A stretch of DNA of 64,000 nt, taken from assembly GCF_030577135.1 (NCBI RefSeq), contig NZ_JAUIRR010000002.1, forward strand, positions 450,157 through 514,156, read 5' to 3'. The translations under genes and the position numbers were made by a program. Below the pieces are notes generated by a model. It saw nothing but the letters and a program-made list of their open reading frames with translations, searched no databases and had not been told where the DNA came from. The DNA comes from Sulfurimonas sp. hsl 1-7 (GTDB lineage: Bacteria > Campylobacterota > Campylobacteria > Campylobacterales > Sulfurimonadaceae). Below, in pieces: positions 18,022 through 21,694 of the stretch (positions within the stretch are counted from its first letter, which is position 1; every line of letters begins with the position of its first letter).

Positions 18022-18738
18022 CTAGAAACTAGGGCTTCCGTCAAATCCAAATCCTCCGTCAAAGCCACCGCCAAACGAACCGAAATTAGGATCGCTATAA
18101 CCAAACATACTTGATCGAACTCTCAGTTTTTCGATATCGGCTTTAGATGAAATATTTTGCGGGCACACAACTGTACAGTTATTGCAAAGTGTACAATCCC
18201 AGATCCCGTTTGTCTGAATAGTCTCTATTTTTTCTGCAGCATCATTTTCACGTTTATCACTTACATACTTCCAAACACGTGTAAGTGAAAACGGTCCTAA
18301 AAACTCACCGTTAACTGCATACACTGGACAAGAGGAGTAACACGATCCACATAAGATACAATCACTTTGCACCTCGTTGATCTTCTCCGCTTCATGATCA
18401 AGTACAGCTTCGTCATTAAAACTTTTGATCCATGCTTTTGCTTTTACGTTCATCTCATATGATTTGTCCATATCTACAACAAGATCGCGAACTACAGGCA
18501 TATTGTTAAGCGGTTCTACACTATCTCCGTCTTGAACCTTGTATGAACACGCCAATACCTCTTTTTCATTTACTCGCATTGCACAGCTTCCGCAAACACT
18601 GCTGCGGCATCCGCTTGAAAAACTGAGTGTATTATCGATCTCACGTTTAATCTTATTCAACGCTTCTAAAAGTGTATATGAGCCATCTTCGAGCTCATAA
18701 ATCTCGTAAGAGTCCCCTCTTTTAATCGTTATTTTCAT
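18022..18738 (-). CDS. sdhB: Succinate dehydrogenase/fumarate reductase-like iron-sulfur subunit
   Basis: The ATG at 18738 shares its A with the sdhA stop (TGATG), so the two are translationally coupled. The N-terminal ferredoxin domain has the [2Fe-2S] cysteines near residues 44, 49, 52 and 64 (CRSSVCGSC and LAC). Next come CILCGSCYSSCP for a [4Fe-4S] cluster and CTLCNNCTVVCP. This last motif has four cysteines, where the common [3Fe-4S] motif has three, so a second [4Fe-4S] cluster is expected, as in E-type SQR enzymes. The C terminus is an unusual Gly/Phe/Asp tail (GGGFDGGFGFDGS). No membrane-anchor gene is adjacent. Confidence 0.85.
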   Translation of the reverse strand: MKITIKRGDSYEIYELEDGSYTLLEALNKIKREIDNTLSFSSGCRSSVCGSCAMRVNEKEVLACSYKVQDGDSVEPLNNMPVVRDLVVDMDKSYEMNVKAKAWIKSFNDEAVLDHEAEKINEVQSDCILCGSCYSSCPVYAVNGEFLGPFSLTRVWKYVSDKRENDAAEKIETIQTNGIWDCTLCNNCTVVCPQNISSKADIEKLRVRSSMFGYSDPNFGSFGGGFDGGFGFDGSPSF

Positions 18739-20246
18739 CACTCAGCCTCCATATAATGTGCACCGCAACTCTCATCTCTTCCAAGAGCACTTTGAATAAC
18801 AACTTCACTCACTTCAACAATGTTTCTAAACTCTAAGAACTCTTGTTTGTTAGTATTGTAGATTTCAGAACTATCGCTCCAACCCATTTGCGGCAGTAGA
18901 GATTTAACCATCTCTAACTCTTCTAATGCACTTTTTAATTCAGATTTTTTTCTCACTATCCCCACTTTATTATAAAGCAGGTTTCCGATCTTCTCTTTAT
19001 ACTTATAAAAATCAACCGTATTTGTAAACTCTCTGTCTAAGAAACATTCGGTGTGTGCAGGCACAGATAAACTCTCCACCTCTTTTGCCGTTTTTGCAGC
19101 ATTGCGTCCCGCTTCACGCCCAAACACTACGATCTCTAAAAGTGAGTTACCGCCTAAACGGTTTGCACCGTGTACATTATGGTTTGCACACTCTCCACAC
19201 GCATATAGTCGCTCAACATTAGTTTGTGATCTATGATCAACTGCAATACCGCCCATCGTATAGTGCGCTACAGGTTTAATGGGAATAAGATCGTGTACCG
19301 GATCAACATTTTCATACAGTTTTGCCAGCTTTCTCTCTTGCGGTAAACCCTCATCTATGAACTGTTCTCCAAGATGGCGGATATCCAAGAAAATATCCTC
19401 ACCTTTTTTGATCTGCTCATCAATGGCACGACTTACTTCATCACGAGGAGCCAGTTCATCGGTAAAACGCTCCCCTTTAGAGTTTAGCAGGTAACCGCCC
19501 TCACCCCGAGCCGATTCACTAATTAAGATAGATGAATTTTTCAGACCTGTCGGGTGAAACTGTACAAACTCCATATCTTTGAGCTTTGCACCTGCGCGGA
19601 GTGCCGCTGCAATTCCGTCACCACTTGAAGCTGTTGAGTTTGTTGAGTATTTATCATAGATGCGTGAATAACCGCCCGTTGCTAAAATAACAGTTTTAGC
19701 AATATATGTTTTTAACTCACCGCTACGGATATCTAAAACTTTTGCACCGCAGGCCTTGCCATCTTCATCTTTTAACACCTCTAATAAAAAGGTGTCATTC
19801 ACAAACTTGATCCCTAAAGCGTTTGCTCTATCATATAAAGTGTGAAGAATCTTTAAACCCGTATAGTCTTGTGCATAGCAAGCACGGGGAGCAGATGCAC
19901 CACCAAGTCTTCTTTGAGCTATCTTGCCGTCACCTGTACGTGAAAAACATACACCGATACTATCAAGATATTCAACAGCATTAATAGCTTCTGAACACAT
20001 AAAGCGGATGCTCTCTTCATCGGCTTCACCGTGAGCAGATTTGAGTGTATTTTGTATGTGAGACTCTACACTGTCCTCAGCTACATTACCAAGAGCGGCA
20101 TTCATCCCCCCTTGTGCCATACAGGTTTGAGATCTTGTCGGGTACTCTTTAGTAAGTACTAAAACATCAACACCCTCCTCTTTTGCAGCGATCGCCGCCA
20201 TAAGACCTGCTCCACCTGCACCTATAATTAAAACATCGGTTTTCAT
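18738..20246 (-). CDS. sdhA: Succinate dehydrogenase/fumarate reductase-like flavoprotein subunit
   Basis: A 502-residue FAD protein: dinucleotide motif GAGGAGLMAAIAA at residues 9-21, the TRSQTCMAQGGMNAALG stretch near the FAD site, the substrate-site loop with the catalytic arginine (APRDEVSRAID), HYTMGGI and the C-terminal HGANRLGGNSLLE. There is no Tat or Sec signal, so unlike the periplasmic MfrA of Wolinella this subunit should be cytoplasmic. It is the first gene of a two-gene operon with sdhB. It oxidises succinate or reduces fumarate, or acts on a related acid; direction and quinone link cannot be decided without an anchor subunit. Confidence 0.88.
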   Translation of the reverse strand: MKTDVLIIGAGGAGLMAAIAAKEEGVDVLVLTKEYPTRSQTCMAQGGMNAALGNVAEDSVESHIQNTLKSAHGEADEESIRFMCSEAINAVEYLDSIGVCFSRTGDGKIAQRRLGGASAPRACYAQDYTGLKILHTLYDRANALGIKFVNDTFLLEVLKDEDGKACGAKVLDIRSGELKTYIAKTVILATGGYSRIYDKYSTNSTASSGDGIAAALRAGAKLKDMEFVQFHPTGLKNSSILISESARGEGGYLLNSKGERFTDELAPRDEVSRAIDEQIKKGEDIFLDIRHLGEQFIDEGLPQERKLAKLYENVDPVHDLIPIKPVAHYTMGGIAVDHRSQTNVERLYACGECANHNVHGANRLGGNSLLEIVVFGREAGRNAAKTAKEVESLSVPAHTECFLDREFTNTVDFYKYKEKIGNLLYNKVGIVRKKSELKSALEELEMVKSLLPQMGWSDSSEIYNTNKQEFLEFRNIVEVSEVVIQSALGRDESCGAHYMEAE

Positions 20247-20770: not shown

Positions 20771-21694
20771 CTATAAACTCTCTTTTATATTTTTAATAAC
20801 ACCCGCAATGAGCTCGTCTCTTGCTTCAACAGATGTCCAAGCAATATGAGGAGTCATATACAGACGCTCTTTGTTTTTCACACTTAAAAGCGGTGATTCA
20901 CTCGATAATGGTTCTTTTGTAAATACATCTAAACCAAAATAGAGCTCTTTTTCATCTACAAGTTTAGCAACAGCATCCTCGTTAATGATCCCGCCACGAC
21001 CTAAATTTAAAACGATCGTACCCTCTTTACATCTGCTTAACTGCTCATAGTCTAAAAGATTGTTTGTCTGCTCATTTAACGGTGCATGGATCGTAACAAT
21101 ATCGCAAGAGCTAAGAAGTGTATCTAGATCAACATTTTTGTACTCAGAGTTGTTGTTTTTCCCGCTTGTTGAGTAATAACACACATCAGCACCGAAACAA
21201 TCTGCAACTTTTGCAACACCGCGTCCGATCTCACCAAGTCCGATGATACCCCACTTCTTCCCTTTAACTTCAAAGAAAGGACGGCTAACATCCGTAAAAA
21301 CACCGCTATTGCTGTATGTTTTATCTTTCACACTCTCATCATAATAACGTGAATGTCCCATTAGATAAAACAGCATTGAAAAAGTGTGCTGGATCACAGA
21401 ATCGGTTGAGTATCCTGCAACATTTTTCACTGCAATACCAAGCTCCGAAGCAGCTTCTAGATCAACGTTATTCATCCCCGTTGCCGCTACACAGATAAGT
21501 TTGAGGTTTTTACACTCTTGCATTATCTCTTTTGTGATCACAACTTTATTAGTCACAATCACATCAGCATCCATCACTCTGCTTTGTGTCTGCTCCGGAA
21601 CTGTTTTCTCATAAACTGCCACATCACCAAACTGATCAAATCCGCTTAAGTCCGTATCTCCAAAAGTGATCGTATCAAGAAGTACTATTTTCAT
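20771..21694 (-). CDS. D-isomer-specific 2-hydroxyacid dehydrogenase
   Basis: A 307-residue NAD(P)H enzyme: substrate domain halves flank a Rossmann domain with GLGEIGRGVAKVA near residue 153. The catalytic triad is present: Arg in LGRGGIINE, Glu in DVFTKEPLSS and His in MTPHIAW. This set fits glycerate/hydroxypyruvate-reductase-type enzymes (HprA-like), but the substrate cannot be fixed. Its start shares one base with the purT stop (TAATG), indicating translational coupling. Confidence 0.85.
   Translation of the reverse strand: MKIVLLDTITFGDTDLSGFDQFGDVAVYEKTVPEQTQSRVMDADVIVTNKVVITKEIMQECKNLKLICVAATGMNNVDLEAASELGIAVKNVAGYSTDSVIQHTFSMLFYLMGHSRYYDESVKDKTYSNSGVFTDVSRPFFEVKGKKWGIIGLGEIGRGVAKVADCFGADVCYYSTSGKNNNSEYKNVDLDTLLSSCDIVTIHAPLNEQTNNLLDYEQLSRCKEGTIVLNLGRGGIINEDAVAKLVDEKELYFGLDVFTKEPLSSESPLLSVKNKERLYMTPHIAWTSVEARDELIAGVIKNIKESL

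What the first reader, a model, noticed from the sequence alone, without database searches (positions are those of the whole stretch)
18022..20246. SdhAB pair with E-type-like third cluster and no anchor gene
SdhB motif CTLCNNCTVVCP has four cysteines, as in archaeal-type SQRs with a second [4Fe-4S] cluster instead of [3Fe-4S]. No SdhC/D or SdhE gene is next to it: the flanking genes are DUF805 and a VTT protein. SdhA has no export signal. A Gly/Phe-rich tail on SdhB is unusual. The pair might be soluble, use a distant anchor, or work on a different acid.
Basis: partly seen in the sequence, partly recalled or inferred. Interest (0 to 1): 0.55.

Follow-up and report, generated by a model that had tools for sequence, protein, structure and literature searches.

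The report
Anchorless two-part fumarate reductase
A pair of genes in a Sulfurimonas-type bacterium most likely makes a free-floating enzyme that turns fumarate into succinate for carbon fixation, carrying an odd but conserved tail in the place where related enzymes attach to the membrane.

Summary
SdhA (18738-20246, -) and SdhB (18022-18738, -) overlap; SdhB has the four-Cys third-cluster motif and a Gly/Phe-rich tail, SdhA has no export signal, and no anchor gene lies beside them. The pair is a conserved family in 125 of 397 Campylobacterota genomes. The window's genome shows no Sdh_cyt anchor and its only SdhE belongs to a separate sdhABE operon, so a distant anchor is unlikely. Active-site residues are kept and a separate NadB exists, so another acid is not indicated. 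The FAD-binding histidine is missing in 112 of 112 distinct sequences; in related enzymes that loss goes with fumarate reduction only. Best reading: a cytoplasmic two-subunit fumarate reductase, serving the reverse TCA cycle in most carriers (100 of 125 have ATP-citrate lyase). That idea is in print (Sievert 2008, as cited in PMC4674564). The universal histidine loss and the Phe-ended tail (116 of 124) were not seen in print in my limited searches. Electron donor and tail function are unknown.

The parts
18738..20246 (-). SdhA/FrdA-type flavoprotein, 502 aa, no export signal, short C-terminus, non-covalent FAD predicted
   Evidence: model pLDDT 92.7, nearest solved folds are complex II flavoproteins
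18022..18738 (-). SdhB/FrdB-type iron-sulphur protein, 238 aa from ATG (239 from the GTG at 18741)
   Evidence: family alignment A1
20121..20141 (-). PTRSQTC: Gln40 stands where complex II has the FAD-binding His
   Evidence: no His in 112 of 112 distinct family SdhA with a residue there (108 Q, 2 A, 1 N, 1 G; one more row has a gap)
19158..19556 (-). dicarboxylate active-site residues His231, Glu244, Arg268, His328, Arg363 (roles recalled)
   Evidence: each invariant in 142 of 142 aligned family rows, near-copies included
18325..18360 (-). second cluster motif CILCGSCYSSCP ([4Fe-4S] expected)
   Evidence: Cys columns invariant in 22 of 22 rows of A1
18160..18195 (-). third cluster motif CTLCNNCTVVCP, four Cys ([4Fe-4S] expected in place of [3Fe-4S])
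   Evidence: 124 of 124 distinct family SdhB
18025..18102 (-). Gly/Phe-rich SdhB C-terminal tail, ends in Phe
   Evidence: [DN]P-x-(F/M/Y/H/L) motif in 117 of 124, terminal Phe in 116 of 124; residues 221-238 have pLDDT under 50 in a poor model
20771..21694 (-). D-2-hydroxyacid dehydrogenase (PRK08410); conserved neighbour, probably not a functional part
   Evidence: near sdhA in loci of 8 families, but also present in 9 genomes without the pair

Best explanation
The pair is a cytoplasmic, anchorless, two-subunit fumarate reductase. Electrons from a soluble donor enter SdhB at the third cluster ([4Fe-4S] instead of [3Fe-4S]), pass through the second [4Fe-4S] and the [2Fe-2S] cluster to a non-covalently bound FAD in SdhA, and reduce fumarate to succinate. 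Without the covalent FAD bond it should be unable, or nearly unable, to oxidise succinate. In this genome, which has ATP-citrate lyase and shows no FrdABC, it most likely supplies the fumarate-to-succinate step of the reverse TCA cycle, while the separate sdhABE enzyme (FAD-binding His present) handles the quinone pool. Shown here: gene anatomy, motifs, no anchor found, family conservation, genomic co-occurrence. Inferred: direction, cofactor state, cluster types, location and pathway. Guess: the Phe-ended SdhB tail, which starts about 20 residues after the third cluster, covers or docks at the surface where an anchor would sit.
For: Sdh_cyt is not found in this genome, while the same search finds it in 9 of 17 genomes and 8 of 14 controls. 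CCG domains here occur only in the SdhE of the sdhABE operon and in one 431-aa frame of a size common in the order. No SdhE/FrdC homologue beside the pair in 45 loci. FAD-binding His absent in 112 of 112 distinct sequences and present in 8 of 8 SdhABE, FrdABC and f13/f16 rows that cover the site. Active site invariant. PMC2680327 (passages): Wolinella MFR lacks this His and shows no succinate oxidation. PMC9557727 (passages): soluble fumarate reductases with non-covalent FAD only reduce fumarate. Family in 125 of 397 genomes; 100 of these 125 have ATP-citrate lyase, and 100 of 119 ATP-citrate-lyase genomes have the family. Both subunits persist in 4 genomes where the genes are unlinked (the SdhA match of one, G054, shows an internal stop). 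Each subunit forms one clade in trees of chosen rows: SdhA 100/99, 29 rows; SdhB 100/100, 28 rows.
Against: 25 of 125 carriers lack ATP-citrate lyase, 20 of them in family f9, so the role is wider than the reverse TCA cycle; 19 of 119 ATP-citrate-lyase genomes lack the pair. Co-occurrence is clustered by family, so the Fisher p (1e-49) overstates independence. 5 of 36 same-genus genomes lack the SdhB, two of them 93-94% complete. No activity, localisation or cofactor data exist. Restoring the His in Wolinella MFR did not restore succinate oxidation, so direction is not set by the His alone. Anchor families other than Sdh_cyt and CCG were not searched, and a non-homologous membrane protein could serve; VTT is adjacent in many f1 loci. 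No donor was identified.
Confidence: 0.68

Rival explanations
1. The pair borrows the SdhE anchor of the sdhABE operon, or another membrane protein (such as VTT), and is a second quinone-linked enzyme of type E.
For: The four-Cys third cluster is typical of E-type enzymes (PMC2680327 passages). An SdhE exists in this genome. VTT sits between HADH and sdhA in many f1 loci. In nine f9 carriers a short CCG frame (247-276 aa) lies roughly 10-25 kb from the pair and resembles the second half of TfrB (93-100 bits in the four examined).
Against: The six short CCG frames examined in f9 and f20 carriers do not match the SdhE model NF042965, which this genome's SdhE matches at 236 bits; such a frame was not found in the window's own genome. 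VTT is beside the pair only in f1. The pair's SdhB lacks the long C-terminal part of the own E-type SdhB (238 against 324 aa).
Confidence: 0.12
2. The pair acts on another acid or is an L-aspartate oxidase-like enzyme.
For: No FAD-binding His and a short C-terminus, as in NadB; NadB model score 410.8 against a cut-off of 452.75.
Against: A separate NadB over the cut-off (468.7 bits) is in the same genome. The SdhA model is nearer to complex II flavoproteins (ranks 1-34) than to NadB (rank 35). It is paired with an SdhB, which NadB is not (recalled). Five dicarboxylate residues are kept.
Confidence: 0.1
3. A soluble fumarate reductase whose main role is biosynthetic redox balance or succinate supply rather than the reverse TCA cycle.
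For: 25 of 125 carriers have no ATP-citrate lyase; conserved placing near a D-2-hydroxyacid dehydrogenase.
Against: 100 of 125 carriers do have ATP-citrate lyase; the dehydrogenase occurs with or without the pair.
Confidence: 0.25

Closest known systems
[quoted passage not shown] 2008, as cited in PMC4674564; PMC2628731 implies that one S. denitrificans complex has no anchor subunit)
   Same: Same kind of anchorless pair beside an anchored enzyme in the same group of bacteria; same proposed role
   Different: Probably the same family, but the 2008 paper is not held, so identity of the genes and whether it noted the His loss or the tail could not be checked
8-methylmenaquinol:fumarate reductase MfrABE (Wolinella, Campylobacter)
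   Same: Four-Cys third cluster, no FAD-binding His (PMC2680327 passages)
   Different: MfrA has a Tat signal and an anchor subunit (PMC2680327); the pair has neither
Thiol:fumarate reductase TfrAB of methanogens
   Same: SdhB matches the TfrB model over positions 3-218 of 488
   Different: No second half; scores far below both cut-offs
E-type SdhABE
   Same: SdhB cluster pattern
   Different: No SdhE with the pair, shorter SdhB, no FAD-binding His
Multi-subunit soluble fumarate reductase of Hydrogenobacter thermophilus (recalled; not read)
   Same: Soluble, reverse TCA cycle (recalled)
   Different: More subunits, NADH-linked (recalled)

Membership tests
complex II superfamily SdhAB/FrdAB | flavoprotein with FAD fold and dicarboxylate residues | tested here: met
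   TIGR01812 543.2 bits is just under its cut-off of 567.3
complex II superfamily SdhAB/FrdAB | iron-sulphur subunit with [2Fe-2S] and two further cluster motifs | tested here: met
   TIGR00384 189.6 bits, cut-off 88; Cys columns invariant
membrane-bound complex II (types A-F) | membrane anchor C, C/D or E | tested here: not met
   none adjacent in 45 loci; no Sdh_cyt in genome; only SdhE belongs to sdhABE. Other anchor families were not searched
MfrABE | scores over the MFR models | tested here: not met
   A 423.9 of 1100, B 140.2 of 600
MfrABE | Tat signal on the flavoprotein | tested here: not met
   FAD fold starts at residue 3
TfrAB | TfrB with HdrB-like C-terminal half | tested here: not met
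   match to 3-218 of 488 positions; 170.7 of 385 bits
NadB | score over the NadB cut-off | tested here: not met
   410.8 or 410.3 of 452.75; separate NadB 468.7
soluble fumarate-only reductase | no FAD-binding His | tested here: met
   absent in 112 of 112 distinct family sequences
soluble fumarate-only reductase | soluble enzyme reducing fumarate, no succinate oxidation | not testable with these tools
   needs protein

The most novel reading that the evidence does not exclude
A separate anchorless class of complex II: SdhA without covalent FAD plus an SdhB whose flexible, Phe-terminated C-terminal tail replaces the membrane anchor and docks a soluble electron donor directly at the [4Fe-4S] third cluster. 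In family f16 a short SdhB ending in Phe-Phe lies in the same cluster as SdhA, a long SdhB and SdhE, which would let one SdhA swap between a membrane and a soluble partner.
Probability: 0.3. Interest if true: 0.62.

Novelty: new variant of a known kind. Interest (0 to 1): 0.42.

Why it matters
Fumarate reduction is a required step of the reverse TCA cycle that many Campylobacterota use to fix carbon at vents and redoxclines. This family is a concrete candidate for that step in 100 of the 119 ATP-citrate-lyase genomes sampled, including this one, which shows no FrdABC. If the donor is soluble, the step would not draw on the quinone pool, which changes energy budgets for these organisms. The His loss and the conserved tail give two simple, testable predictions.

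Tried and rejected
Missing-NadB idea: rejected, a separate NadB is present. Functional link to the D-2-hydroxyacid dehydrogenase: it lies near sdhA in loci of 8 families, but 9 genomes without the pair also have it (G038, G044, G045, G046, G048, G049, G051, G052, G055), so gene order alone is weak evidence. Pure reverse-TCA marker: weakened by 25 carriers without ATP-citrate lyase. Short CCG proteins in f9 and f20 as hidden SdhE: six examined, none matches the SdhE model at E 0.001; they resemble the C-terminal part of LdhH and of TfrB. Structure of SdhB: the model is poor (mean pLDDT 70.0, pTM 0.48, rmsd about 15 A to its best matches), so it says nothing about where the tail sits. Promoter and terminator scan: no more sites than in shuffles.

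Limits. Distribution outside Campylobacterota was not reached: the one genome-contig scan kept the best 80 of 374 relatives, most of them titled Sulfurimonas, the rest with wider campylobacterial or unspecified bacterial titles. Six weak PF16114 matches (E 3e-6 to 8e-5: G253, G285, G299, G304, G333, G416) were dropped before the count; partial matches of PF16114 in G341 and G411 and of SdhB in G357 were kept. Genomes counted without the pair include those with other SdhB types, told apart by E-value and frame length. Rows under 420 aa (SdhA) and under 180 or 200 aa (SdhB), and SdhB frames cut by a locus end, were dropped before the motif counts. The 112 and 124 distinct sequences are rich in Sulfurimonas. 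The trees hold chosen rows and flag NadB and FrdA and FrdB as long branches.

Full report
WHAT IS THERE. The two ORFs are at 18738-20246 (SdhA, 502 aa) and 18022-18738 (SdhB, 238 aa from the ATG), both on the minus strand, overlapping as TGATG. SdhB passes the general SdhB/FrdB model TIGR00384 (189.6 bits, cut-off 88). SdhA scores 543.2 against TIGR01812 (cut-off 567.3) and lies below the cut-off of each of the 25 families shown (of 78). Pfam finds FAD_binding_2 and Succ_DH_flav_C in SdhA, and Fer2_3 and a 4Fe-4S dicluster in SdhB. The AlphaFold model of SdhA (pLDDT 92.7) is closest to complex II flavoproteins; L-aspartate oxidase comes at rank 35.

ORGANISM. The best named relatives are mostly titled Sulfurimonas. 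The window lies in a 2.28 Mb genome, 99.99% complete. I take it as Sulfurimonas or a close relative; the genome itself is unnamed. Families are given as the tool's unnamed labels (f1 is the window's own).

ANCHOR QUESTION. The genome has two SdhB genes. The other one lies in a complete sdhABE operon (A 586 aa as the ORF was called, with the FAD-binding His; B 324 aa; E 293 aa). Sdh_cyt is not found in the genome, while the same search finds it in 9 of 17 genomes, relative G009 included. CCG domains occur only in that SdhE and in one 431-aa frame. In 45 family loci no SdhE or FrdC homologue lies beside the pair (BLAST E 1e-6 against this phylum's own sequences; the 46th locus, L128 of f16, is not of this family and does hold SdhE), and no membrane protein is a constant neighbour. 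In the nine f9 carriers searched, CCG frames are of about 430-447 aa, 249-276 aa and about 943-970 aa; the two f20 carriers have more kinds. Six of the short frames (four f9, two f20) were examined and none matches the SdhE model NF042965, which the window genome's SdhE matches at 236 bits. Anchor families other than Sdh_cyt and CCG were not searched.

FAMILY AND SPREAD. SdhB of this type is in 31 of 36 same-genus genomes and in 12 of 23 other genomes of the order. In a draw of 397 genomes of the phylum it is in 125. Each subunit forms one clade in trees of chosen rows from this phylum: SdhA 100/99 with 29 rows, SdhB 100/100 with 28 rows. In four genomes (G040, G047, G054, G059) the genes are unlinked and both are still present; the G054 SdhA match shows an internal stop.

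CATALYSIS. Positions equivalent to the dicarboxylate site of complex II are kept: His231, Glu244, Arg268, His328 and Arg363 in 142 of 142 rows, near-copies included; residue 243 is Ser in 137 and Gly in 5 (assignment of roles is recalled). The position of the FAD-binding His is Gln40. Across 113 distinct family sequences it is Q in 108, A in 2, N in 1, G in 1 and a gap in 1; never His. The eight SdhABE, FrdABC and f13/f16 SdhA rows that cover the site have His; the six nif-linked-type rows and NadB have Asn. PMC2680327 (passages) reports that Wolinella MFR lacks this His and does not oxidise succinate, and cites that replacing the His in E. coli QFR and yeast SQR abolished succinate oxidation; adding the His to MFR did not restore it. 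PMC9557727 (passages) states that soluble bacterial fumarate reductases with non-covalent FAD can only reduce fumarate. Hence the predicted direction.

THIRD CLUSTER AND TAIL. The four-Cys motif is in 124 of 124 distinct SdhB sequences. PMC2680327 reads the E-type cysteine pattern as a second [4Fe-4S]. It is also in the genome's own E-type SdhB, so it is not by itself unusual. The tail is: 117 of 124 carry a [DN]P-x-(F/M/Y/H/L) motif after the third cluster, 116 of 124 end in Phe, and the last 25 residues have 61% G/F/S/N against 27%, and 0.56 K+R against 3.89, in 9 other SdhBs from the same loci. Two of those nine are f16 short SdhBs that themselves end in FF. The SdhB model is too poor to place the tail.

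PATHWAY. ATP-citrate lyase (PF16114, weak matches dropped) is in 119 of 397 genomes, the pair in 125, both in 100, pair only in 25, lyase only in 19, neither in 253. Pair-only genomes: 20 in f9, 2 in f6, 2 in f20, 1 in f18. Lyase-only: 9 in f16, 6 in f20, and one each in f1, f6, f9 and f10. The association is clear but clustered by lineage. The window's genome has the lyase, no FrdB-like third match, and this pair; 12 of the 36 genus relatives show an FrdB-like third match.

WHAT IS ALREADY KNOWN. PMC4674564 (passages) reports a genome with a two-subunit and a three-subunit copy, and says that Sievert et al. 2008 suggested the two-subunit form to be cytoplasmic and part of the reverse TCA cycle. 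PMC2628731 (passages) says that, unlike in S. denitrificans, both Nautilia complexes have an anchor. PMC6702916 (passages) lists SDHAB for the reverse TCA cycle in a campylobacterial snail symbiont. PMC2147049 (passages) credits fumarate reduction in Arcobacter butzleri to FrdABC; whether A. butzleri has this pair was not checked. The 2008 paper is not held. Searches of the open library listed no title or abstract start that describes the His loss or the SdhB tail of this family; most listed papers were not read and subscription papers are not covered, so this is weak evidence of novelty.

VERDICT. An anchorless, soluble-type fumarate reductase, known in outline and, as far as I could see, new in detail. 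The strongest open points are the electron donor and the Phe-ended tail.

Noticed in passing
L128, L209, L210, L211, L212, L096 (family f16; loci chosen because they hold a short SdhB): Beside one SdhA (FAD-binding His kept) lie a long SdhB plus SdhE (5 of 6 loci) and, after a small RIO-kinase-like ORF (tested in L096), a short SdhB of 236-243 aa ending in Phe-Phe (6 of 6). One SdhA may serve two SdhBs.
   Followed up: partly
L087:7281-8921 (window genome contig C6); similar in L093, L102: A third FrdA-like flavoprotein (546 aa, Asn at the FAD-His position) with no SdhB beside it; a weakly aldo/keto reductase-like gene lies just upstream and nif-like genes (by eye) near it.
   Followed up: partly
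nine f9 genomes, e.g. G285 contig C1 about 59.6 kb (pair) and 72.4 kb: A short CCG protein resembling the second half of TfrB and the end of LdhH lies roughly 10-25 kb from the pair. It may belong to lactate use (recalled), or be a split-TfrB-like partner there; none was found in the window's genome.
   Followed up: partly
window:14295-16229: 644-aa protein with two DUF1538 stretches and a C-terminal P-II regulator domain; a homologue directly follows the pair in L109.
   Followed up: partly
window:13835-14176: Small protein with an export-like start and a Gly/Met/Gln/Lys-rich repetitive C-terminus; no Pfam match.
   Followed up: partly
L115, L117, L119, L125, L127 (family f9): A conserved soluble ORF of about 130-170 aa (EMFSSTELIRK-like text near its start) lies just upstream of sdhA; L114 has a looser version.
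   Followed up: no
L040, L046, L126 (families f4, f18): A CRP-like regulator gene (name by eye) follows sdhB directly, hinting at regulation with the pair.
   Followed up: no
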